DNA of 64,000 bases from Anaerolineae bacterium. GTDB lineage: Bacteria; Chloroflexota; Anaerolineae; Anaerolineales; Anaerolineaceae. A program made the translations under genes and the position numbers. Location: positions 1 through 64,000 of the forward strand of contig DUED01000037.1 in assembly GCA_011176685.1 (NCBI GenBank), written 5' to 3'. The notes under the pieces are model-generated. The model had not been told where the DNA came from, did not search any database, and saw only the letters and a list, made by a program, of their open reading frames with translations. Positions 50,895-64,000 of this stretch are shown here, one piece after another (the stretch's first letter is position 1; each line of letters begins with the position of its first letter).

Positions 50895-51422
50895 TCAGAT
50901 AATTGATTCTAAGAATAATTTTGAGCTTTGGATTTCATCTTCATCTAAAGAATGTAGGATTAATGGTCCATGATAGTTTGATTTTTTTAATAAATGAATA
51001 TATAGAGGGTAATTGAGAACTCCTTTTCCCGCCGCACAATATCCAATAGGATTTTTGTTTTTTAAATCCTTAGCGTGTGCAAGGATTATATAAGGGCTCA
51101 ACAATTCAAATGCTCGCTTAAGAATATCATCCATTTGAAGAATTTCATTATAGTGAAATAAATTAGCGCCATCCATGATTATTCCTAATCTTGGATTCTT
51201 AAATTCTAGAATTGCTTTTAGTGCTTTTGTGGGTGAATCAATTACATTATTTATTTCAGGTTCCATACCTAATTTCAAGTCATATTTTTCTGCAATCTCC
51301 AATAATCTAGACATCGATATCATGAAATCTTCCCAAGCACGTATGGTATCGTTATCTGGATGATATTTCCATTTGTCAACTGGGTCTTTGGTTCCTGTGC
51401 ATAAGGTCAATATTTTTGTATC
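50895..51422 (-). pseudogene. Sugar phosphate isomerase/epimerase, N-terminus lost to IS30
   Basis: About 175 residues of a xylose-isomerase-like TIM barrel: LTLCTGTKDPVDKWKYHPDN, WEDFMISMSRLLEIAEKYDLKLGMEPEINNV, LGIIMDGANLFHY and ILAHAKDLK, with the metal-binding glutamate and histidine present. The first about 90 residues of the family are missing. The frame runs uninterrupted out of the IS30 transposase, so the IS insertion (with a deletion) created a chimeric open frame from 52073 to 50895. No active isomerase is expected. Confidence 0.75.
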
Positions 51423-52474
51423 CTGAATTCGAGTAATAAGTGCAACTTTCATTTCCTGAAAGAATACCATATCTGGTGACGAGAATCCCAGGCATTTTCG
51501 AGGACGATGGTTCAATCTCAATATAACTCGTTCAATATCATTATCGGTTAGGTCTGCAAAATCCGTACCCTTGGGGAAGTATTGTCTGATCAAGCCATTG
51601 GCATTTTCATTGGTTACACGCTCCCAGGCGGCTTGCGGATGAGCAAAATATACGTTGGCATTCAAAGCCTGTGCGATTGCGATATGCTCAGTAAATTCTT
51701 TGCCATTGTCACAGGTAATAGTTGTTGTTTGATCTATAAATGGGTAGAGCAAATCGATGATGGCTTGTTTTACTGTTTCAGCTTTACGGTCATCCACTTT
51801 TTTCAGCAGGGTCATCCTGGTTCTTCTCTCAGTCAAGGTCACGATCGCTTTGTGCTTGCCTTTACTGATGATCGTATCTGCTTCCCAATTCCCAAGCCTG
51901 TCGCGTTGTTCTACTACCATCGGCCGCTCATCAATCCATACCCGGTTGGGGATCTGTCCCCGTTTTTCATAGCTGCCATAGCGTTTTCTTCTCTTTTTTC
52001 GGCATCTGAGATGCCTCCATAATGACCTACCAATGTGTTTATCCTGATAGATCCATTCATGGCTGATTCGCAATATCTGTTCTTTCCAAAGATGATCGCT
52101 AATTTATTGCGGACTCCAATCCAATTTTAGTAGCTAATTGATCATCCTCCATGCCGCTGTGCTGATTCTCTTTTTCGCTTTATCCCGACTCTCGATTGCG
52201 AACTGATGGGCTTGTTTAGGGCGGTAACCTCTCTTTCCCCTATTGCGCGCAATCTCTCTGCCTATGGTTGATTTGTGTACTCCAATGGTTTGAGCTATCA
52301 CGGTTTTTAAATGACCTATTTTCAATAATGCATATATCTGGTATCTTTGTATATGGGTAAGCTGTGTGTATTTTTGCATGAGTGCTCCTTTGATTTAGTC
52401 GTTGGAGAGGTATTCATCTTACCGCAGCTTACCTCTCTTTGACTTTCAAAGTTGCACTTGCTAGTTGAATTCAG
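51423..52474 (-). mobile_element. IS30-family insertion sequence, decayed
   Basis: The terminal inverted repeats share CTGAATTC-N7-AAGTGCAACTTT (51423-51449) with its inverted match at 52448-52474, giving an element of about 1.05 kb. It contains one leftward transposase gene disabled by two stop codons. It sits inside the sugar isomerase gene. A target duplication could not be identified, consistent with a deletion at one end. Confidence 0.8.
51430..52379 (-). pseudogene. IS30 transposase with two in-frame stops
   Basis: The N-terminal HTH (YTQLTHIQRYQIYALLKIGHLKTVIAQTIGVHKSTIGREIARNRGKRGYRP) is followed in the same frame by TAG at 52134-52136 and TAA at 52104-52106, both where the family has glutamine or glutamate (MIN-stop-LLKLDWSPQ-stop-ISD). 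The DDE core is otherwise whole: RLGNWEADTIISKGKHKAIVTLTERRTRM, TITCDNGKEFTEH, then NENANGLIRQYFPKGTDF and HRPRKCLGFSSP. Both stops could arise from C-to-T changes at CAG and CAA. Confidence 0.85.
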
Positions 52475-53185: not shown

Positions 53186-53950
53186 TTATGAATAAAAATA
53201 TTTATTGATTTGTTCTAAATCTAGAATTCCATCGTATTCAAATTGTTTCTGGGATTTAATTAGCTTTCCTCTTTCACCATCTGGATCCCCCAGGCATGTG
53301 ACGATCAAGTCCGCTTCTGATAAATCTTCCTTCTCGGTATAGTAGTTCGTGGTGACCACTACTCGTAAACCAGCGGCTTTAGCCGCCAATAAACCGTTAC
53401 GTGAATCCTCGATTACAACGCAATCATCGCAGTTAATCCCGCTAGTCTGAATTGCTAAATTATATATCTCAGGATCTGGTTTCTTTTTATTGACCATGTC
53501 ACCAGCAAGTACAAAATTAAAATTTATATCCTTCAGAATTTTATAAGCAATCGCGTTAGCAGCCCTTTCATTTGAAGTAGTACAAATTCCAATTAGCACA
53601 CCAGTTTTATTTGCGTCTTTCATTAAACGCTTTATTCCAGGGCGTAATGGTAAAGCACCGATTTCTATTAATTCGATGAATCTTTCGGTTTTATATTTAT
53701 GTAGTTTCTTAATTAGCTCATCCTCTTCCTCGGGCTTGACGACCTTTCCAAAGCCCTTGGTGTGCAGATAGTGCCTCATACGCTCTTTCCCACCGGCAAC
53801 CTGAAGAAGCTTATGATACTCACCCACATCCCATTGAAAGGAATAACCAAAAGATTTAAAAGTTTGATTGAATGCAACTCGATGACCATCCTTTTCCGTG
53901 TCAATAATTACCCCATCCTGGTCAAAGAATATACCTTTTAAACCACTCAT
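53186..53950 (-). CDS. HAD-superfamily phosphatase/phosphoglucomutase-like protein
   Basis: This 254-residue protein has motif I FFDQDGVIIDTEKDGH, motif II IGICTTSNERA, a lysine in NKKKPDPEIYNLAI (motif III) and motif IV VIEDSRNGLLAAKAAGLRVVVTT. It has a helical cap like beta-phosphoglucomutase and CbbY. It lies 18 nt downstream of the aldolase, in the same leftward unit, and probably acts on a phosphorylated sugar of the pathway. Confidence 0.87.
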   Translation of the reverse strand: MSGLKGIFFDQDGVIIDTEKDGHRVAFNQTFKSFGYSFQWDVGEYHKLLQVAGGKERMRHYLHTKGFGKVVKPEEEDELIKKLHKYKTERFIELIEIGALPLRPGIKRLMKDANKTGVLIGICTTSNERAANAIAYKILKDINFNFVLAGDMVNKKKPDPEIYNLAIQTSGINCDDCVVIEDSRNGLLAAKAAGLRVVVTTNYYTEKEDLSEADLIVTCLGDPDGERGKLIKSQKQFEYDGILDLEQINKYFYS

Positions 53951-53968
53951 TTCTCCTCCAAAATATTA

Positions 53969-54844
53969 TTAGACTTTTCCTGCGCTACCGATGATATCGA
54001 TCCACTTATATACAACTTCCTTGATAGCATTTTTCACTGCCACATCAATCTTGCCAGGATTATATTCATCCCTGTGTTCGTTGATGTACTTGAACCCCGT
54101 ATCAATTAAGGTGTGTTTTAACTCAGTGGAAACGTTAACCTTCGCCCCCCCCAAGGCAACTAATCGCTGTACGGTCTCGCGCGGTAAACCAGTACCACCA
54201 TGAATGACTAGTGGAACTCTAACCGCTTGTCCATTGATTAAATTAAAGATATTCTCCAACCGCTCGAAATCCACTTTTGGGTTTTTTGTTTTATAGATAC
54301 CATGCGCTGTGCCGATAGCAGGTGCTAATAGGTCCACACCTGAACGCTCTACAAACTCCAGTGCTTCATGTGGATTGCAAAGTTTGGATTCATCTTCGAT
54401 AACTTTAATCTGGTCCTCTACCCCTGAGACGGTTCCTAGCTCACCTTCCACGAAAACTCCCTGCAAGGAGTGGCAGAAGTCCACTACTTCCTTGGTCTGG
54501 TGTATATTTTCATCGAATTTCTGCTTTGAAGCATCAATCATAATGTTGGTATAGCCAGCCTTGGCGCACTGTTTGCATAAATCAACATCCCGACAGTGAT
54601 CGAGGTGCAGCACCACAGGAACTGGTGCTTTCTTCGCCAGAGTGCGGTAAACCGCCACCAATACATCTTTGTCAAGGAATTTCACTGGTGTGACCGAAGT
54701 TTGGATAATTACCGGTGCTTTTCTATCCACTGCTGCTTCAATTATTGCCTCCATCTGGACAAGACTGGTGATATTGAAAGCACCGACGGCGTAATTTTCT
54801 TTTGAGGCTTTTATTAGCAACTCTTTTATATTAGCAATAGACAT
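53969..54844 (-). CDS. Class II ketose-bisphosphate aldolase
   Basis: This 291-residue zinc aldolase has NYAVGAFNITSLVQMEAIIEAA, the catalytic aspartate and first zinc histidine in VVLHLDHCRD, then VEGELGTVSGVED. The zinc histidines appear in APAIGTAHGIY and LVIHGGTGLP, and the phosphate-binding KVNVSTEL follows. It may act on fructose-, tagatose- or another ketose-bisphosphate. Its place beside a HAD phosphatase and a pyruvate-dehydrogenase-like complex indicates a catabolic role rather than core glycolysis. Confidence 0.9.
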   Translation of the reverse strand: MSIANIKELLIKASKENYAVGAFNITSLVQMEAIIEAAVDRKAPVIIQTSVTPVKFLDKDVLVAVYRTLAKKAPVPVVLHLDHCRDVDLCKQCAKAGYTNIMIDASKQKFDENIHQTKEVVDFCHSLQGVFVEGELGTVSGVEDQIKVIEDESKLCNPHEALEFVERSGVDLLAPAIGTAHGIYKTKNPKVDFERLENIFNLINGQAVRVPLVIHGGTGLPRETVQRLVALGGAKVNVSTELKHTLIDTGFKYINEHRDEYNPGKIDVAVKNAIKEVVYKWIDIIGSAGKV

Positions 54845-54856
54845 TATTACCTCCGA

Positions 54857-56071
54857 TCAATTCAATAGATTTTTTGGTGTTTCCAATAAGTCTTTAATCC
54901 GGTTGATGAATTTACAAGCCAGTACACCATCACATACACGATGGTCGATGGATAAAGTTAAATTCATCATATCCCGTATAGCATATGAATTGTCCTCCAT
55001 AACCCCGATTGTTTTTCGAATGGTAGAAACAGCCAGTATGCCGGTTTCAGGAGGATTGATGATGGCACTGAAATTATCAACATTATGCATACCCAGATTT
55101 GATATTGTAAATCTTCCAGGCACAATGCTGATCTGCTTACCTTCTCGCGCCGCGTTTACTAATTGGCGGATCTGCTTTGACAAGGCAAGCAATGGTAGCT
55201 GATGTGGATGTTTGATAACTGGAACAATCACCCCATCTTTATGAGATACTGCAATACCGATATTAATATCTTCCCAAAGAATGATATGCTCTTTGTCAGA
55301 AAATGATGCGTTAATTTCCTTGAATTCATTTAATGCAAGAGCACAGGCTTTAATAATAAAATCATTGATAGCAACTGCTTCCTCTTTTGAAAGATTACTC
55401 TCTTGGTTAATTTCTTCACGTACTTTGAGCGCCCGGGTCATATCCACAGCTAAGGTAACATAGAAATGTGGCACTGTCTGCTTACTTAAGCTCATACGCT
55501 GAGCAGTAACCTGCTTGATTTTTCCCATTAATAACATCTGACCACCTGGAGTTTTCTTAACACTCGCGTATTTATCTTTAGCGCCCCTCTTATCCAGGTA
55601 GGCAAGCACATCCTCAACAACGATGCGTCCTAATGAGCCTGTGCCTTTAAGTTTATTTATAGGTACTTGGTTCTCCTTAGCGATCCTTTTAGCTTTGGGA
55701 GAGATAATAATTTTTTTCCCAGGCGAGATTATGGTAGCTTTATCTAACCGATTGCCCTGCCCCGCATTTTGTGCATCTTTATCCTGTTCAGAAGAGGCTT
55801 CATCTCCTTCAGTAAAACCTTCAATAGAATCTGATGGATCTCCCACTAAACCAATAACTGAGAATATAGCAGCCTCCATACCTGTCTGGACTACAATTTT
55901 ACGCAAATAGCCATCTGCGGGGGCTTCCACTTCGAAAACCGCTTTTTCGGTTTCCACCTCGCAGATGATTTCACCTTTCTTGACCGGCTCGTCCTCCTGT
56001 TTAAGCCACCTCACTACTGTACCTTTTTCCAAGTCTTGTCCACCTTGGGGCATGATGACTTTTGTGATCAT
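54857..56071 (-). CDS. 2-oxo-acid dehydrogenase E2 (dihydrolipoamide acyltransferase)
   Basis: This 404-residue protein has one lipoyl domain with the lipoylated lysine in ICEVETEKAVFEVEAPADGYL (about residue 45). A Glu/Ser/Asp-rich linker and a peripheral-subunit-binding domain (ISPKAKRIAKENQVPINKLKGTGSLGRIVVEDVLAYL, about 118-155) follow. The catalytic domain ends in TLSIDHRVCDGVLACKFINRI, with HxxxDG intact. With E1 alpha and beta it forms a pyruvate/acetoin/branched-chain type complex. No E3 (lipoamide dehydrogenase) gene is in the window, so it must be shared. Confidence 0.92.
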   Translation of the reverse strand: MITKVIMPQGGQDLEKGTVVRWLKQEDEPVKKGEIICEVETEKAVFEVEAPADGYLRKIVVQTGMEAAIFSVIGLVGDPSDSIEGFTEGDEASSEQDKDAQNAGQGNRLDKATIISPGKKIIISPKAKRIAKENQVPINKLKGTGSLGRIVVEDVLAYLDKRGAKDKYASVKKTPGGQMLLMGKIKQVTAQRMSLSKQTVPHFYVTLAVDMTRALKVREEINQESNLSKEEAVAINDFIIKACALALNEFKEINASFSDKEHIILWEDINIGIAVSHKDGVIVPVIKHPHQLPLLALSKQIRQLVNAAREGKQISIVPGRFTISNLGMHNVDNFSAIINPPETGILAVSTIRKTIGVMEDNSYAIRDMMNLTLSIDHRVCDGVLACKFINRIKDLLETPKNLLN

Positions 56072-56099: not shown

Positions 56100-57077
56100 T
56101 TATTTATTCAATAGTGATTTCACACCCGCAACAATCTCTCCGATCGTAGGGATGCACACTTTCTCAAGGTTTATATTAAATGGGATGGTAGTGTTCTTTC
56201 CAGCTATACGTATTACAGGAGCATCCAAATCATCAAATGCTTCTTCCATAACCATTGCAGCGATATCTCCCCCAACCCCTCCCCGCTTGCAAGCTTCATG
56301 TACTATTATCAAGCGGCTGGTTTTTTTCACTGAATTTAAAATCAGTTCTTTATCTAATGGAACAAGAGTGCGCAAATCGAGCACTTCAGTACTAATGCCT
56401 TCTTCAGCCAGTTCTTCAGCTGCTTTCAAGCACTTCAAGATCATATAGGAGTAGGACAACAAGGTAATATCTTTACCCTTTCGTTTGATATCTGCTTTTC
56501 CAAGAGGGATTAAGTATTCCTTATCGGGTACCTCACCTTCAGTCCGATAGAGTAATTTGTGCTCGATAAATATTACTGGATCATCGTCGCGGATAGCTGA
56601 TTTAAGTAATCCTTTGGCATCATATGGAGAGGAGGGCATTACCATTTTTAGACCAGGAATATGATAAAACAATGCCTCTAAGCTTTGTGAATGTTGACCA
56701 GCTAACCCATTCCCTACCCCACCTTGTGTACGAATGACCAGAGGTACATGACCCTGCCCGCCGCTCATGAAATTATATTTTGCAGCCTGGTTAACTACTT
56801 GTTCCATGATGAGGAGCGCAAAATCGATAAACATTATCTCAACCACTGGCCTGGTGCCTAAAATAGCCGCACCCACACCCATACCGGTAAAGGATGCTTC
56901 AGAAATTGGAGTATCTATCACACGATTTAAACCAAATTCTTCATATAACTGATCAGTCACTTTATTAGACCCACCGCGTTCACCAATCCCCTCTCCCATC
57001 AGAAACACCAGTGGGTCATGCAACATTTCCTCGCGTAACGCCAATCGTAGAGCCTCACGGTATTGTATTTTTGCCAT
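56100..57077 (-). CDS. 2-oxo-acid dehydrogenase E1 beta subunit
   Basis: This 325-residue transketolase-type beta subunit has YREALRLALREEMLHDPLVFLMGEGIG, RVIDTPISEASFTGMGVGAAILGTRPVVEIMFIDF, QGGVGNGLAGQHSQSLEALFYHIPGLKMVMPSSPYDAKGLLKSAI and EVLDLRTLVPLDKE. The GEGIG position (usually GEDVG) is slightly unusual. It starts 28 nt after E1 alpha. Confidence 0.92.
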   Translation of the reverse strand: MAKIQYREALRLALREEMLHDPLVFLMGEGIGERGGSNKVTDQLYEEFGLNRVIDTPISEASFTGMGVGAAILGTRPVVEIMFIDFALLIMEQVVNQAAKYNFMSGGQGHVPLVIRTQGGVGNGLAGQHSQSLEALFYHIPGLKMVMPSSPYDAKGLLKSAIRDDDPVIFIEHKLLYRTEGEVPDKEYLIPLGKADIKRKGKDITLLSYSYMILKCLKAAEELAEEGISTEVLDLRTLVPLDKELILNSVKKTSRLIIVHEACKRGGVGGDIAAMVMEEAFDDLDAPVIRIAGKNTTIPFNINLEKVCIPTIGEIVAGVKSLLNK

Positions 57078-57105: not shown

Positions 57106-58065
57106 TTATAAGGGTTTTATTTCTTGCAAGAATTCTTCTAATGATGGATCCGGACTCTCCAACGCAAACTTCACAGCTTCATCAATGCTTTTTTCCACTT
57201 GCGCGTTTATTGCCTGTATATCCTTATCTGTTAAGGATTGTTCCTGTAAATACTTTCGCATAATGATCAGCGGATCTTTTGATTTCCAATACTCCAGCTT
57301 TTCTTTGGGCATGTATAATCCCGGGTCATTGACATGATGTCCACTAAAACGATATGTCTTGCACTCTATCAAGGTGGGGCCTTCTCCTTTGCGCGCCCGT
57401 GAGATGGGTACTTGCATGGTCTCATAGACCTTCACAGCATCATTGCCATCAATCGTAATCCCTGGAATCCCATATCCAGTTGCGCGAACAGACAAGTCCT
57501 TTATAAGCGTCATCGCTTCCACTGGTGATGTGACAGCATAATGATTATTCTCTATGATATATATTACGGGTAGATGATAAATAGCAGCCATGTTCAACGA
57601 CTCGTGAAAAACGCCATTATTTATTGCACCATCACTGAAGAAGCATAGTACAACCTCCCGACCTTTTTTTTGCTTGATAGCCATACCGGCTCCAGTAGCT
57701 ATTGGAATTCCAGCACCTACGATTCCGTTAGCACCCAAATTCCTCTGTTCCAAGCAAGCAACATGCATTGAGCCCCCGCGCCCCTTGCAATACCCAGTGG
57801 CTTTTCCGAATAATTCAGCAAGCATAGTTGTAAGGCAATGCTCTTTTGCAATAGCATGGCCATGTCCCCGATGTGTACTGGTGATGTAGTCGGTAGGTTC
57901 CAGGGCTGTGATGGCGCCAACTGCAATGGCTTCTTCGCCAATATAGGGATGGAGGTAGCCCCGAATATTTCCTAGGCGGTACTGCTCTGTGGCTCTTTCC
58001 TCAAATCTACGGATAGATAATATCAGTCGGTACATCTTTTTCAAGATATCAATTTGAATATTCAA
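57106..58065 (-). CDS. 2-oxo-acid dehydrogenase E1 alpha subunit
   Basis: This 319-residue thiamine-diphosphate subunit has GNIRGYLHPYIGEEAIAVGAI, STHRGHGHAIAKEHCL, GRGGSMHVACLEQRNLGANGIVGAGIPIATGAGMA and the cofactor motif FFSDGAINNGVFHESLNMAA. The length and wording fit the acetoin/pyruvate E1 alpha group. It is the first gene of the E1 alpha-E1 beta-E2 set, downstream of the NACHT-FGE gene. Confidence 0.92.
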   Translation of the reverse strand: MNIQIDILKKMYRLILSIRRFEERATEQYRLGNIRGYLHPYIGEEAIAVGAITALEPTDYITSTHRGHGHAIAKEHCLTTMLAELFGKATGYCKGRGGSMHVACLEQRNLGANGIVGAGIPIATGAGMAIKQKKGREVVLCFFSDGAINNGVFHESLNMAAIYHLPVIYIIENNHYAVTSPVEAMTLIKDLSVRATGYGIPGITIDGNDAVKVYETMQVPISRARKGEGPTLIECKTYRFSGHHVNDPGLYMPKEKLEYWKSKDPLIIMRKYLQEQSLTDKDIQAINAQVEKSIDEAVKFALESPDPSLEEFLQEIKPL

Positions 58066-58115: not shown

Positions 58116-60831
58116 CTATAAGCCAAAGCGTGATAATGCAATGCGAAAGCCACAGATGCTCGTACGTAATACTGGGAGCGGTGAACGCCTTGTAGTGCAG
58201 CGAGCGTAACGGCGATAATTATTATATGAGGCACCACGCAAAACACGCAATAGATTCAATTCTCCCGGCATCAAGTTTTCCCTGCCATCATAAGGATCGT
58301 AAGGGTATTTATAGCGTACAATATATTCATCCTCTCCCCACAAACTGCGTGTCCATTCCCATACATTCCCATACATTCCCAGCCATATCTAAAACGCCAT
58401 AAGGGCTGATACCTCCAGGGAAACAACCCACTATACTAGTATCACTTAAACCTGTTTCTTTCAAGTTTCCGAAGTTAGGATCGAATTCATCCCCCCAAGG
58501 AAATATACGTGCCTCTCCTGCGCTACCGAACGGTCCGCGTGCAGCTTTTTCCCACTCGGCCTCACTGGGCAGCGTCACCTTCCATCCATCCGCCAAGAGC
58601 GACTTAAGAAGTTGTGGAGTTCCTGTCCAAGTTAGTAATGAACGAGTGAGCCACTGACAATAACGCAAGGAATCAGACCAGGTGACGTGAGATAATGGAT
58701 GATTGGAAAATCCGTTTAAACCTTCCGGTATCTCAGGTTGAAAACCGCTGTTTTCTATAAAGGCACGAAACTGAGCTGTGGTCACTGGGTAGCGGGCAAT
58801 ATAAAATGTAGGCAGCCAAAGCTCATGTTGGGGAATCTCGCGCTTATACCACTGGTGCATTAATATTGAAGAATCTTGGTTTTCCCAACCGGCTCCTAGG
58901 TCCATTTCGTGTAGTAATTGATCAATGTTAGGTTCTTTAGATAACATTGCCCCTAACGTTAGTCCATCCCAATCTGAGCCAATGCCTAAATCCTCAATTA
59001 AGTGTGGGATATCTTCTTCACGAGTGCCCATAACAAACTTACCTTCGGATATTTCGATGAAACCTAAAAAGGGATCATCTGGCAAAAACCAGGCATCTGA
59101 CCGAAAGCGAGGATCACCAAGCTTATCCAATATAACTCCTGCACAAGCGCGCTCCTTTGCTGGCAAGCTGTTGTTTTCTAGTACCCGAACCAGCGATCTT
59201 TGCACTTGAGGTAAGACCTTCAAGCCATCCTCTTTATGGGAATAATCAACTTTTATTAGGATCTTACTAGCTACATATCCAGCCCAGGATCCAGCTTTAG
59301 TATTTGAACCTTTCATATACAGCATTTCAATTAATTCCCAAACCCGCTTGGGCTCTTTTCTTATTATCCTCTCGGCGGCTAGTAACAATACATCCTGCCA
59401 GCGCTGTGGGTCGGAGAGAAATAGTGCAACTAAATTAGCAGGATAATCATTTTCCAATAGGTGGTATGCCAGTAAAAAATTCTGGATCAATTGATGCGGA
59501 AATGTATATACTCCTGGTTTTTCACTATTCAAGATCCCACTCTCTACCCTGAGCTTCTTGTCCAATAAATCATCAATGAGATTGGGATAACGATTGAGGT
59601 TATATAAATCCGAAACAATATTTATAAAAGTAAATTTATAAAGTCCAGTATGGGAATGAGAATCATTTGTTTTTTTATATACTAATTGCCCTAACCTCCT
59701 GAGTAACTCACTTTGGTCAACCCTTAATGATTCACTTTCTCTCCCTCTATGTGCCAATGATTTTTTTATTGCAATACTCAAATCAGTGTAGTCCCATTGA
59801 TGAATGAGTACTTCCACAGCTTTCTCTAACAACTCTTCGCGAGTCTCAGGGAGGAATTCTCCTTCCGAGATATTTATATAAACCATAAGAGTTAGCATCA
59901 AGGGATTCTGTATTAATTGGAAATGTTCAATATTAGCGTCTATCCAATTATGGAAATTTTTACGTTGGATCGAAGAAACATTCTCATCAACAACCTTATG
60001 CCTTATAAAATATTCAAACCAACGTTGAATAAAACGATTGATTTGCATATTATTAAAAGGCGAGATCTCGGCAACTGTGAAGCCTGACAAATACTTATTT
60101 TGTTCCCAATTAGTTTTATCCCCATTTGCAGCGATAATAACACGGCTCTTAGGGTATATATGGATAAATTCAGGTAGTTCGTTAAGAACTCGATAATACG
60201 AGTTATTATTATGGATAGCGACATCATCCAATCCATCTAAAAGAAATTGGATACCCATCTCCTGTAATTCTTCATGAAACTCTGAAATAAATCCTTCCAG
60301 ACCAATTTCTTTTAAATAAGCATCACAATAATTTAGAAGGGAAAATGGACCACGCCAATTTGTTTTAGCGGCGAGATCGGTGATATCTTGTAAATCAATC
60401 TTCAGCGGCAGCATTGGCTGACTATCTAATGGATTCGCATTTATCTCTTCACTCGATTGTTCCTCTTTATAAAGTCGGTCAAGGTCCAAACCCGGAATTT
60501 TTAGGCATCCACCAGCCAGAGATAGATTGATAGCATGCAGAAACGTACTTTTACCTGCCCCCCCACATCCACAAAGAATGAGATAAGGTTCCTGAAGATA
60601 TGTTTGCAAGGCCGAGATATGAGGATTCTCGCGAATAGGCTGCAAATCTTTAGAGCTTACTTGCTTCTTGTCCGGAGTGGGGGTTAATAGGGGAACATAT
60701 AAGTCCAACCAATCCTTGTTGCCATTGAAATTTTCTAAACCCCTCGCCAGATTTAAAAAAAATGGTGAGGCATGCATATTACATAATATGTGTTTAAGAT
60801 ATTCACCACGTGAATCTATATTGCCCACCAT
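58116..60831 (-). pseudogene. NACHT NTPase fused to FGE-sulfatase domain, frameshifted by a 10-bp duplication
   Basis: The composite is about 900 residues. A NACHT-type STAND NTPase comes first: Walker A YLILCGCGGAGKSTFLHAI (about 87-101), Walker B FLLDGLDDVAIH and the downstream helical NACHT region with PLMLTLMVYI. A formylglycine-generating-enzyme/SUMF1-like domain follows (EISEGKFVMGTREED, YPVTTAQFRAFIENSGF, PLSHVTWSDSLRYCQWLT, LPSEAEWEKAARG, GNVWEWTRS, RGASYNNYRRYARCTTR, GFRIAL). The frame breaks at GNVWE, where a 10-bp unit at 58361-58380 is duplicated, giving a +1 shift and an early stop (58327). One copy fewer restores the domain. Such STAND-FGE proteins are candidate immune sensors. 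It interrupts an otherwise metabolic cluster. Confidence 0.85.
58355..58380. repeat. 10-bp tandem repeat in the NACHT-FGE gene
   Basis: ATTCCC followed by two exact copies of ATACATTCCC gives 2.6 units. Without one copy the reading frame of the FGE domain is continuous, so unit number sets the frame. Confidence 0.9.
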
Positions 60832-60837
60832 TTTCCT

Positions 60838-61626
60838 CTATTCTTGTTGTCTGGGTTGACTATGAGATTTGTCAGGATATTTACCTTCGTGCACCTCTGA
60901 AATAAAAGATCTAATTGCTTCAGAGGTAAGCTTACCCAATTGAGCATACTGCTTTACATAATATGGGTGATTACGATAGGTCAATCCGAGCAGGTCTTCA
61001 AGTACTAGGATCTGCCCATCACAATCCGGACCAGAGCCTATACCAATAGTAGGGATATCAACAGAGCGCGTTATGGCAGCAGCGATAGAAGGGCGGATCT
61101 TTGATAACAACAGAGTACTTGCGCCCTTTATCTCAAACTCTTTCCCAAGAGCAAGCATGGCTTGGTAGACTGCTTCTTGGTTTGTCTGCTGCTTAGCATG
61201 TACACGATCATCCTTGATGTCCAGCATAGTGAAGTGACCAACAACCGGGATATCGGCATGCGCTATTGCTGCAACGATATCCAATGCGAGTTGTGAGCTG
61301 CCCTCCACTTTAATGCTGTGTGCTTTTCCTTCTTCAATAAGCCACCTGGATGCTTTCACAGTTGCTTCAATTCCCTCTTCCATAGTAGCTTGGGGTAGAT
61401 CTACCATTATTTTTACTCGCTTACATGCACGTGCCACAGCTTGGGTGTGATAAAAAATCTGCTCTAGGCTCATATTTCTGTGGTCAGGCAACCCTGAGAA
61501 TACTCGTGTTGCGGAATCCCCAACTAGGATCATATCCACTCCAGCTTCCTCAGCAAGATGCGCCATTGTGTAACTATAAGTGACTACCGCGCATAATTTA
61601 TTAGTATGTGCTTTCATAGCTTTCAT
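60838..61626 (-). CDS. PanB-like (ketopantoate hydroxymethyltransferase) paralogue
   Basis: This 262-residue TIM barrel resembles PanB: VDMILVGDSA (metal aspartate), KIMVDLPQATMEEG (metal aspartate), KAHSIKVEGS (metal glutamate), VVGHFTML, and IPTIGIGSGPDCDGQILVLEDLLGL. The metal site is kept, but the catalytic-base block VLExVP is replaced by LLLSKIRP, so the usual glutamate is missing. The usual GHxGLxPQ is also altered. It is therefore probably not a pantothenate enzyme but a related lyase or aldolase in this catabolic cluster. Confidence 0.75.
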   Translation of the reverse strand: MKAMKAHTNKLCAVVTYSYTMAHLAEEAGVDMILVGDSATRVFSGLPDHRNMSLEQIFYHTQAVARACKRVKIMVDLPQATMEEGIEATVKASRWLIEEGKAHSIKVEGSSQLALDIVAAIAHADIPVVGHFTMLDIKDDRVHAKQQTNQEAVYQAMLALGKEFEIKGASTLLLSKIRPSIAAAITRSVDIPTIGIGSGPDCDGQILVLEDLLGLTYRNHPYYVKQYAQLGKLTSEAIRSFISEVHEGKYPDKSHSQPRQQE

Positions 61627-61674: not shown

Positions 61675-62445
61675 TTAAATGAATCTTTGCCTTACCAATT
61701 CAACCATGCGAGAAACAGCTTCGGGTTTAGTGAGCCCGGTGCTTTTGTCAATAAGAGAACTGAATACATGTGGCAGAATGAAAGCACACCCACATTTCAA
61801 GCCAGTGTTAATAACCTCATTGATATTTTCCTCAGTGATTCCTGAACTTGGTTCTACCAATTCTAAACCAGCTTCCTTTGCAGCCCTGGTTATATTAGCC
61901 AGCCAATTGAAATTAACACCCTTCTTGGTGAATTGAGCTTTTACAGACTTAATACCCCATCCAGAAATGAGCTCCATAGCATCTCTGATTTGGAGAGTAA
62001 TAATTCTTTCTGCATTTTTTTTACCAATTTTGATGATTACCTGATCCTCACGATTAGCTTCTTGTACCAGGGCATTAATGATTGTATGTTTAACCCCAGC
62101 TTGGTGTAGTCTGCCTTGTGCATAACCTGACAATTCAAAGGGTTGGTTGATGTGATCCGGCTTGGAAAGTAGGGCGGCTTTGATCACTTTTTCTGCCTGT
62201 GAAAAATCCGCTTCTCCAAGCGCTATTGAGATCACACCCAATTTATCTTGCATCTGTTTTGCTTCCTGAGCCAATGATTCAGCACTTGAATATTTATTGG
62301 CACTTACTGCCACGAGCCCGGCCCCATTCAGAGCTTGATTCACCTTAATGGCATTATCAATATTCAGGGCGGGCACAAGGAAAAGAATACGGGAGTTAAT
62401 TGGTTTTAATCTGGAAAAAAGAATATTAAGGATACTTTCTTCCAT
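61675..62445 (-). CDS. DUF1341/KDGP aldolase-like lyase
   Basis: This 256-residue barrel protein has DAMELISGWGIKSVKAQFTKKGVNF, then LELVEPSSGITEENINEVINTGL and CAFILPHVFSSLIDKSTGLTKPEAV. This is the characteristic C-terminal pattern of the DgaF/KDGP-aldolase family (GGxSVKFFP, EPTGGI, PHVYSSIIDxxTGxT). Those enzymes split 2-keto-3-deoxy-6-phosphosugar acids to pyruvate and glyceraldehyde 3-phosphate. The first KFFP lysine region is divergent (KAQFTK). It overlaps the upstream creatininase gene by 20 nt. Confidence 0.7.
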   Translation of the reverse strand: MEESILNILFSRLKPINSRILFLVPALNIDNAIKVNQALNGAGLVAVSANKYSSAESLAQEAKQMQDKLGVISIALGEADFSQAEKVIKAALLSKPDHINQPFELSGYAQGRLHQAGVKHTIINALVQEANREDQVIIKIGKKNAERIITLQIRDAMELISGWGIKSVKAQFTKKGVNFNWLANITRAAKEAGLELVEPSSGITEENINEVINTGLKCGCAFILPHVFSSLIDKSTGLTKPEAVSRMVELVRQRFI

Positions 62446-63190
62446 CTTTAAGCCCTTTCTGATGTTGCTGAATTAAATTAACTGACTTGCCAACCATGAA
62501 TTCTAAGAGTGCCTTTCCTTTTTCTGCGGTTGCAACAGTTGCATCTCCTACAACTCCGCTCTTGCAGAAATCACTCCACGGGATCGAGATGGATCCGAAA
62601 AGTGGATCGACCTCAGGGTATTCACTTACAGCTTTGCTCATGTCTACCAGCTCAGGTCGCAGCGCTAAAACACAGGAGGTTTCAAATTCCTCTGCGTGAA
62701 CATATTTTGAATGCCAGCGTTTGGATTTACAATATTTTGCCATGGCTTCATATATCCCTGGGAGAACCAGATTAACAATGCGTGCCTGTGAGGAAAGCAG
62801 CAATTTTCGCTCTGCTTCTTTACAAGCTGCTGCAGCCCCCACATGACTTTGGAAAATATATATAGTATTAATCCCATGTATATACATTGACTCGCTGATG
62901 TCCACAAGCGTCTCAACAAATGTAGCATCAGACACACGCACGGTTCCAGGATATAGGCGTAATGAAAATGATGGAGTATAACGCAGAGTAGCCATTAAAA
63001 GCGCGCCAGTCTCCTCAGCAATTCGCTCACTTAGATAATCAGCAATAATCACATCACAGCAGAACGGCAGGTGTGGTCCATGCTGTTCAATGGCAGCCAC
63101 CGGCAGTATTGCGTAGTCCGTATGCTTTATGAACTCTTCAAATTCCGGTCTTTTCATTTCCGTATGACGAAAAATTGTGTTTTTATTCAT
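62426..63190 (-). CDS. Creatininase family amidohydrolase
   Basis: This 254-residue protein matches the creatininase family: YAILPVAAIEQHGPHLPFCCDVIIADYLSE (metal ligands in E-x-H-GPHLP-x-D). SLRLYPGTVRVSDATFVETLVDI and IFQSHVGAAAACKEAER (usually NGHGGN) follow, then VHAEEFETSCVLALRPELVD (usually HAGExETS). The altered NGHGGN is notable. Members hydrolyse C-N bonds of cyclic amides or formamides. It overlaps the DUF1341 gene. ATG 63190 gives the longest form; 63157 is an alternative. Confidence 0.82.
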   Translation of the reverse strand: MNKNTIFRHTEMKRPEFEEFIKHTDYAILPVAAIEQHGPHLPFCCDVIIADYLSERIAEETGALLMATLRYTPSFSLRLYPGTVRVSDATFVETLVDISESMYIHGINTIYIFQSHVGAAAACKEAERKLLLSSQARIVNLVLPGIYEAMAKYCKSKRWHSKYVHAEEFETSCVLALRPELVDMSKAVSEYPEVDPLFGSISIPWSDFCKSGVVGDATVATAEKGKALLEFMVGKSVNLIQQHQKGLKDGRKYP

Positions 63191-63317: not shown

Positions 63318-64000
63318 TCAAGAAATTGTTGCCTGTTTGATACCACGGATGAGTTCTTCCAGAGCCTTGAAATCCCCCGCTTTAATTCTTTCCACCATGG
63401 CTGTGCCGACTAATATACCATCTGGTCCTATTTCTACTGCTTCTCTAGCGCTAGTTGGGTTTCTAATACCGTACGCAAAAGTAATTGCAGCTTTGGTTTT
63501 TGTATCGCGGATACTCTTCATTAATTTACGATTTTCCTCGGCTACATTCGGACGATTGCCGGATTGATCAGCGAAAGATTGCATAATCATAACCCCGGCA
63601 GCATTAGAGCCTATATCAGGAAGTAGTGTGTCATCAAAGGGATGCGGCATAAACCTAATCCGGTATATCCCCGTAGGAAGTAGTAATGGATCCATCTCTG
63701 AAACTACATCTGGTTGAATTACAGTTGCATTAGCCAGAAGGTGAGCATCGATATCTGCAGATTTCAATTCTTCGACGAAATTTTTTACACCATATTGTTT
63801 AACGAAGTCTGAATAAGCCATAACCTCGAAAGGCTCGTCTGGATGGTCCTTGCGGATAGCACGGATAAGACCAAAATACTTCTTAAGATCCGGTTCAGCC
63901 TTGAACGAACGCTGGTTTGATTCAGCAATCTGACGGCTATCGCAATAGGGATCATTACTGGGCAAACCCAATTCAACTAAATCAACACCCGCTTTCATAT
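63318..64000 (-). CDS. TrpA-like (tryptophan synthase alpha-type) barrel, 5' end outside window
   Basis: At least 227 residues. GVDLVELGLPSNDPYCDSRQIAESNQRSF corresponds to the TrpA active-site region: the catalytic glutamate in ELGxP and the aspartate after NDP (usually SDPxADGxxIQ) are kept. GIYRIRFMPHPFDDTLLPDIG, IMIQSFADQSGNRPN and TFAYGIRNPTSAREAVEIGPDGILVGTAMVERI are the usual loop 6 and glycerol-phosphate-binding end, with many changes. No trpB or other trp gene is visible. It probably cleaves an indole-glycerol-phosphate-like or other substrate in the catabolic cluster. The start lies beyond 64000. Confidence 0.75.
   Translation of the reverse strand, partial: MKAGVDLVELGLPSNDPYCDSRQIAESNQRSFKAEPDLKKYFGLIRAIRKDHPDEPFEVMAYSDFVKQYGVKNFVEELKSADIDAHLLANATVIQPDVVSEMDPLLLPTGIYRIRFMPHPFDDTLLPDIGSNAAGVMIMQSFADQSGNRPNVAEENRKLMKSIRDTKTKAAITFAYGIRNPTSAREAVEIGPDGILVGTAMVERIKAGDFKALEELIRGIKQATIS

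What the first reader, a model, noticed from the sequence alone, without database searches (positions are those of the whole stretch)
60838..61626. PanB-like enzyme lacking the catalytic glutamate
The metal-binding D, D and E of PanB are kept (VGDS, VDLP, KVEG) but the VLExVP block with the general base reads LLLSKIRP. A kept metal centre with a changed base points to a different C-C bond reaction.
Basis: partly seen in the sequence, partly recalled or inferred. Interest (0 to 1): 0.5.

Follow-up and report, generated by a model that had tools for sequence, protein, structure and literature searches.

The report
Lone PanB relative with altered catalysis
In a sugar-uptake gene cluster of an uncultured bacterium sits a very divergent cousin of the vitamin-B5 enzyme PanB that keeps the metal site but has lost the catalytic glutamate seen in every relative examined, so it probably does a different reaction in sugar-acid breakdown.

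Summary
It is a full-length PanB-family protein (PF02548, 233.7 bits) below both NCBIfam PanB cut-offs. Metal ligands D37, D76 and E108 are kept. The catalytic glutamate is Ser175; all 180 other fetched loci covering the site (177 distinct genes) have Glu. It is not one change: 19 of 57 near-invariant PanB positions are altered, including T23, D26, the GLTPQ loop and P184, while the presumed metal/substrate shell is intact. In the tree it is one very long branch (7.55 against a median of 0.22). The host assembly has no PanC. The gene follows PTS, phosphotriesterase-like, TrpA-like, creatininase and KDGP-aldolase genes. Parts of that cluster occur without a PanB-like gene in Listeria, Alicyclobacillus and a relative. 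Best reading: a metal-dependent 2-oxo-acid enzyme, probably a retro-aldol lyase, in sugar-acid-phosphate breakdown. 'Not ketopantoate hydroxymethyltransferase' is well supported; the exact reaction is inferred. No second member was found among the loci read.

The parts
60838..61626 (-). PanB-like protein, 262 aa: metal-site D37/D76/E108 kept, catalytic Glu replaced by Ser175
61675..62445 (-). KDGP aldolase family protein (PF07071, former DUF1341), 256 aa, upstream neighbour
   Evidence: 131.8 bits; below the DgaF equivalog cut-off
62426..63190 (-). creatininase-family protein (PF02633), 254 aa, overlaps the KDGP aldolase gene by 20 bases
63318..64000 (-). TrpA-like protein (PF00290), 266 aa; runs past the window edge, its start lies at contig C31:64118
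56100..58065 (-). 2-oxoacid (pyruvate-type) dehydrogenase E1 alpha (57106-58065) and E1 beta (56100-57077), downstream; membership in the same operon not shown
53186..56071 (-). E2 acyltransferase (54857-56071), class II aldolase (53969-54844) and HAD hydrolase (53186-53950), downstream; membership not shown

Best explanation
A deeply diverged PanB-family TIM barrel, no longer a ketopantoate hydroxymethyltransferase, works as a divalent-metal 2-oxo-acid enzyme in a PTS-fed sugar-acid-phosphate pathway. Most likely it is a retro-aldol lyase. The kept metal site (D37, D76, E108 with K106, H131, S38, Y17) would hold the 2-oxo-carboxylate end. C-C cleavage itself would produce the metal-bound enolate, so no base is needed to take a proton from C3, which is the job of the lost Glu. 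Loss of two acids (D26, E181 in E. coli numbering) and a gained Arg (R178) would suit an anionic, phosphorylated far end of the substrate. Shown: predicted fold, residue pattern, orphan branch, gene context, lack of PanC in the held assembly. Inferred: metal binding, substrate class, cleavage chemistry, direction.
For: Full-length PanB-family match, below PanB cut-offs. Confident model (mean pLDDT 89.3) whose best structural matches are six PanB entries (1oy0_A Z 32.0, rmsd 1.5 over 240), then methylisocitrate lyases and phosphonopyruvate hydrolase (Z about 19-20, rmsd 3-5). 38 of 57 columns that are at least 95% conserved are kept, with the 7 residues I named as metal/carboxylate shell all among them; lost are T23, D26, G138, L139, P141, Q142, G148, E181, P184 and others. 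Charge changes. No PanC in G000, whereas all 28 PanC genomes of the 61 compared have a PanB-family gene. Context: PTS IIB and ascorbate-type IIC, phosphotriesterase/phosphofuranose-lactonase-like gene, TrpA-like, creatininase, KDGP aldolase directly upstream. TrpA-like paralogues in the same genome sit beside other 2-oxo-acid aldolases: KDPG-type plus DHDPS-type at C2, DHDPS-type at C6, so PanB-like stands where an aldolase stands elsewhere. An intact 262-codon frame on so long a branch argues for long selection (inference).
Against: No substrate or activity is known. A second member of the variant was not found, so conservation of S175 and R178 could not be tested. The enrichment of the 7 shell residues among kept columns is not significant by itself (Fisher p = 0.083). 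Two basic positions of PanB are also lost (W95, Y222), so the charge shift is not one-sided. The lactonase-like gene of the same cluster carries an in-frame stop, so the operon may be decaying or the assembly may hold an error. The genome is 88% complete, so a missing PanC is not proof. Related clusters exist elsewhere without a PanB-like gene, so the step may be accessory.
Confidence: 0.5

Rival explanations
1. It uses the metal-enolate site for another reaction of a 2-oxo acid: decarboxylation, hydrolysis of an oxaloacetate-like C-C bond, tautomerisation or epimerisation, rather than retro-aldol cleavage.
For: The next structural neighbours after PanB are a mixed set: methylisocitrate lyase, phosphonopyruvate hydrolase, oxaloacetate decarboxylase and acetylhydrolase, PEP mutase. 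A KDGP aldolase already sits next to it, so a second aldolase may be redundant.
Against: Rmsd of about 3-5 Angstrom and 10-17% identity to those families; Pfam PEP_mutase only 20.5 bits against a cut-off of 31.5. The other two TrpA-like loci of this genome carry one or two aldolases.
Confidence: 0.2
2. Non-functional or decaying gene: a former PanB under relaxed selection, its invariant residues drifting.
For: Loss of 19 of 57 near-invariant positions, a single long branch, an in-frame stop in the phosphotriesterase-like gene of the same cluster, a creatininase fragment at a related locus in the same genome.
Against: The reading frame is intact, and a neutral gene would hardly stay alignable end to end with 38 of 57 near-invariant columns and a confident predicted fold on such a branch. 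It is not a recent offshoot of its relatives' PanB: in the tree the 57 rows from its own order fall on the other side of a branch (support 85; 14 rows from elsewhere lie among them; the program warns that the place of so long a row is unsure).
Confidence: 0.15
3. Still a ketopantoate (or similar) hydroxymethyltransferase with a relocated base, for example one of the new lid acids D136, D139 or D140.
For: Metal and carboxylate shell kept; three new acids in the lid, next to a poorly modelled stretch (residues 141-147 under pLDDT 50). It is the only PanB-family gene found in the genome.
Against: No PanC found, sugar-acid cluster instead of a pan operon, TAYD and GLTPQ motifs lost, both NCBIfam PanB cut-offs missed.
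Confidence: 0.1

Closest known systems
PanB, ketopantoate hydroxymethyltransferase (EC 2.1.2.11; PF02548; structures 1OY0, 1M3U, 1O66, 3EZ4, 3VAV)
   Same: Predicted fold, full-length alignment (27-34% identity to solved structures; up to 42% to genome loci), metal ligands D45/D84/E114, K112, H136, S46, Y25 (E. coli numbering).
   Different: E181 is Ser, P184 is Arg; T23/D26 (TAYD), G138-L139-P141-Q142 (GLTPQ) and G148 lost; below NCBIfam cut-offs; sits in a sugar-acid cluster in an assembly without PanC.
PEP mutase / isocitrate lyase superfamily (methylisocitrate lyase PrpB, phosphonopyruvate hydrolase, oxaloacetate decarboxylase PA4872)
   Same: TIM barrel with a metal-enolate site (mechanism recalled); Z about 17-20.
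   Different: Sequence identity 10-17%; Pfam PEP_mutase model misses its cut-off.
PTS - phosphotriesterase - creatininase - KDGP aldolase - sugar isomerase cluster (Listeria monocytogenes; Alicyclobacillus dauci has the middle three beside an ABC transporter)
   Same: The same gene families with phosphotriesterase, creatininase and KDGP aldolase in the same order.
   Different: The window cluster adds TrpA-like and PanB-like genes; neither has a tblastn match in the Listeria and Alicyclobacillus stretches read (E up to 0.001).

Membership tests
PanB / KPHMT (EC 2.1.2.11) | PF02548 family match over the full length | tested here: met
   233.7 bits, residues 2-252, cut-off 28.7
PanB / KPHMT (EC 2.1.2.11) | NCBIfam cut-offs for PanB (TIGR00222 equivalog, NF001452 subfamily) | tested here: not met
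   189.9 against 207.55 and 227.2 against 272
PanB / KPHMT (EC 2.1.2.11) | Metal ligands D45, D84, E114 | tested here: met
   D37, D76, E108
PanB / KPHMT (EC 2.1.2.11) | Catalytic glutamate E181 | tested here: not met
   S175; E in 180 of 180 other covering loci, 177 distinct genes
PanB / KPHMT (EC 2.1.2.11) | TAYD and GLTPQ active-site motifs, G148, P184 | tested here: not met
   VTYS and HFTMLDI in their places, R178 for P184; which lid residue faces which differs between the two alignments
PanB / KPHMT (EC 2.1.2.11) | Pantothenate pathway present (PanC) | tested here: not met
   No PF02569 match in G000, whose assembly is 88% complete; 28 of 61 genomes have one
PanB / KPHMT (EC 2.1.2.11) | Hydroxymethyl transfer from methylene-THF to 2-oxoisovalerate | not testable with these tools
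   needs protein
PEP mutase / isocitrate lyase superfamily proper | Pfam PEP_mutase gathering score | tested here: not met
   20.5 bits against 31.5, residues 2-91 only
PEP mutase / isocitrate lyase superfamily proper | Barrel fold | tested here: met
   PrpB 1ujq_C Z 20.0, rmsd 4.3 over 223; PanB entries Z 28-32
PTS-PTE-creatininase-KDGP sugar-acid cluster | PTS IIB/IIC, phosphotriesterase-like, creatininase and PF07071 genes together on one strand | tested here: met
   the PTE-like gene has an in-frame stop and no PTS IIA gene was seen in the ORF lists

The most novel reading that the evidence does not exclude
A new activity has arisen on the PanB scaffold: by losing the C3 base and the presumed folate-side residues and gaining an arginine, the enzyme became a metal-dependent lyase of phosphorylated 2-oxo sugar acids, a kind of PanB-family member that I did not find described (paper search only).
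Probability: 0.4. Interest if true: 0.6.

Novelty: new variant of a known kind. Interest (0 to 1): 0.45.

Why it matters
PanB genes are named by family match and taken as a sign of vitamin B5 synthesis. This one carries that name by Pfam in an assembly without PanC, so the label would mislead metabolic reconstruction. If it is a lyase, it shows how a folate-linked hydroxymethyltransferase can turn into a sugar-acid enzyme by rebuilding one face of the active site, and it gives an entry to an uncharacterised gene cluster (PTS, lactonase-like, creatininase, KDGP aldolase, TrpA-like) whose substrate I could not find in print (paper searches; open-licence library only).

Tried and rejected
Looked for a clade with the same substitution: genome-contig scan (best 80 of 540 kept), same-order genomes (29 loci besides the window's), ten chosen relatives, a sample of the phylum of a genome titled Bacillota (30 loci), plasmids (only H1 and H12 read), viral contigs (no relative). 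None of the loci read has anything but Glu at the site. The two plasmid hits read (E. faecium, Monoglobus) are ordinary panBCD clusters.

Looked for the cluster by its KDGP aldolase: 2 of 147 family genomes and 2 of 400 phylum genomes matched, in each case G000 itself plus one marginal short hit. In the Bacillota-side sample 12 of 398 matched, but none of the 12 neighbourhoods of 18-20 kb held a PTE, creatininase or PanB-like match at E up to 0.0001. The TrpA-like query was mis-framed, so those twelve were not tested for TrpA-like; one search used the right frame on seven other loci.

Sequencing error at the base codon: rejected (two or more base changes, and P184 and the TAYD/GLTPQ residues are changed too). 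Mis-binned contig: no taxonomic test was made; the TrpA-like, creatininase, SIS and GntR genes have 46-57% identical counterparts in a genome of the same family, which speaks against it. The host's taxon is not told by the tools; 'uncultured' is inferred from a draft of 66 contigs without a name. Fisher test on kept shell residues gave p = 0.083 and is not used as proof. Ribosome-binding site: AAGGAT lies directly before the first ATG (too close) and 9 bases before the ATG of Met4, so Met4 may be the real start; not used as evidence.

Structure-based distances from S175 to the new acids could not be measured: no coordinates are given. Papers: none of the passages seen speaks of the catalytic glutamate of PanB (searches; passages of PMC7770189, PMC10127515 and PMC4814558; section 10 of PMC7770189), so its role as base is recalled, not read. 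on PanB homologues and paralogues listed 2 papers, both about pantothenate (listing only for PMC3082293). One search, on the PEP mutase superfamily together with ketopantoate, listed 8 papers; none was opened.

Full report
WHAT IS THERE. The coordinates are right but the gene is on the minus strand: ATG at 61626, TAG ending at 60838, 262 codons. The protein matches Pfam Pantoate_transf from residue 2 to 252 with 233.7 bits, yet misses both NCBIfam PanB cut-offs. The 5 distinct PDB sequences that match it at E up to 0.001 are all PanB. The predicted model (mean pLDDT 89.3, alignment of 22 rows) lies on M. tuberculosis PanB 1oy0_A with Z 32.0, rmsd 1.5 over 240 residues; after six PanB entries the next rows are methylisocitrate lyases at Z about 20 with rmsd 3-5.

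THE SUBSTITUTION. D37, D76 and E108 align with the PanB metal ligands, S175 with the catalytic glutamate; no row of the 22-row alignment has a gap between residues 152 and 219. Of 183 fetched loci whose match covers the position, 180 (177 distinct genes) carry Glu and the other 3 are the window gene itself; three partial matches do not reach the site. That Glu acts as base, and that the three acids bind metal, is recalled knowledge of PanB (E. coli complex 1M3U); no passage seen in the paper library states it. [quoted passage not shown]

NOT ONE CHANGE BUT MANY. Kept include Y25, D45, S46, D84, K112, E114, H136, G203, G205, D209, G210, Q211, D217 (E. coli numbers). Changed include T23, D26, T57, G138, L139, P141, Q142, G148, E181, P184. 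Two of the 19 (columns of E. coli T102 and Y256) are positions where E. coli itself departs from the majority. The invariant acids D26 and E181 are gone; new basic residues include R41, H49, R50, H143 and R178, new acids include D136, D139, D140 in the lid, and two basic positions are lost (W95, Y222). In the lid the alignments differ by a three-residue shift, so which new residue faces P141, Q142 and G148 is unsure, though none of the three is kept. Residues 141-147 have pLDDT under 50, so a relocated acid cannot be excluded. The kept shell fits chelation of a 2-oxo-carboxylate; the changed side fits loss of ketopantoate/folate recognition. Both are inference: a Fisher test on the shell residues gives p = 0.083.

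ORPHAN BRANCH. In a 139-row tree the window is one end branch of 7.55 changes per column (median 0.22, next longest 2.48), and the 57 PanB rows from its own order lie on the other side of a branch (support 85), with 14 rows from elsewhere among them. The program warns that the place of so long a row is unsure. Highest identity is about 40-42%. A reading frame that stays open and alignable end to end on such a branch speaks for long selection, though recent decay is not excluded.

NOT PART OF PANTOTHENATE SYNTHESIS. In 61 genomes (own plus 60 relatives) PF02548 is found in 33 and PanC (PF02569) in 28; all 28 with PanC have a PanB-family gene. The five with the former but no PanC are G000, G016, G049, G054 and G055. 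G000 has one PanB-family gene and is 88% complete.

NEIGHBOURHOOD. In transcription order on contig C31: SIS-domain sugar isomerase, GntR regulator, PTS IIB, ascorbate-type PTS IIC, phosphotriesterase-like protein (related to phospho-furanose lactonase; in-frame stop), TrpA-like protein, creatininase-family protein, KDGP aldolase family protein, PanB-like protein (GntR named by eye from its sequence). Then come a NACHT-FGE protein whose start lies 6 bases beyond the PanB-like stop, pyruvate-type dehydrogenase E1 alpha, E1 beta, E2, a class II aldolase and a HAD hydrolase on the same strand; whether these belong to the same transcript is open. PTS, phosphotriesterase, creatininase, KDGP aldolase and SIS genes stand together in Listeria, and phosphotriesterase, creatininase and KDGP aldolase beside an ABC transporter in Alicyclobacillus; PanB-like and TrpA-like have no match in either stretch. 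A genome of the same family (G372) has GntR, TrpA-like, creatininase and SIS genes 46-57% identical and a PTS IIC 34% identical to the window's, with no PanB-like, KDGP or phosphotriesterase match in the 20 kb read; beside them lie genes whose sequences resemble the DHDPS-type, SMP-30 and epimerase genes typed at C6 (likeness judged by eye). The host genome has two further TrpA-like paralogues: at C2 with phosphotriesterase-like, PTS, KDPG-type and DHDPS-type aldolase genes, at C6 beside DHDPS-type, epimerase and SMP-30 genes on the other strand. So the module is a recurring sugar-acid device whose aldolase part varies, and PanB-like occupies an aldolase-like slot (inference).

MECHANISM. Most likely: the PTS brings in and phosphorylates a sugar acid or lactone; the phosphotriesterase-like protein opens a lactone; creatininase-, TrpA- and KDGP-type enzymes process it; PanB-like cleaves a phosphorylated 4-hydroxy-2-oxo acid by retro-aldol reaction at its metal, giving an enolate without need of the lost base; the 2-oxo acid product could feed the dehydrogenase genes. 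Only gene content and residues are shown; every catalytic step is inferred. Rivals: another metal-enolate reaction, decay, or a PanB with relocated base.

NOVELTY. I file it as a new variant of the PanB family: it is built on the PanB scaffold but fails four tested features of KPHMT membership (NCBIfam cut-offs, catalytic Glu, motif residues, PanC) and meets two (Pfam match, metal ligands). One paper search on PanB homologues or paralogues listed two papers, both on pantothenate. Interest is moderate: a clear, testable case of changed catalysis, but a single sequence in a draft genome with a broken neighbour.

Noticed in passing
L144:164-1084 (contig C31:64164-65084), minus strand: The phosphotriesterase-like gene of the cluster has an in-frame stop about 70 codons after its start; decay or assembly error.
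   Followed up: partly
L257:5219-7460, L258:5963-8143, L259:4479-6631, L260:5319-7453, L261:4791-6916: A second PanB class of related genomes (Glu181 kept; D209 is His in the two rows checked, L110 and L111) is followed in 5 of 5 loci read by a ~420-435-aa protein; the two of these tested have no Pfam match. G016, G049 and G055, three of the five genomes, lack PanC; the other two were not tested.
   Followed up: partly
L182:9907-10713, L183:9174-9980, window 63318-64000: Three TrpA-like paralogues in one genome, each in a sugar-acid cluster, with close kin in G372 and G314: a likely catabolic TrpA-like family.
   Followed up: partly
window 58327-60831, minus strand: NACHT-like NTPase (PF05729 just under its cut-off) fused to an FGE-sulfatase domain, starting 6 bases after the PanB-like stop; no PADLOC match.
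   Followed up: partly
window 50895-52073, minus strand: One open frame joins an integrase-core (rve, just under its cut-off; transposase-like) piece to the C-terminal part of a xylose-isomerase-like barrel: probably a gene cut by an insertion element.
   Followed up: no
L183:10071 onward, plus strand: A creatininase fragment (122 aligned residues, 50% identical to the window's) lies behind the TrpA-like gene at C6: possible remnant of a duplicated operon.
   Followed up: no
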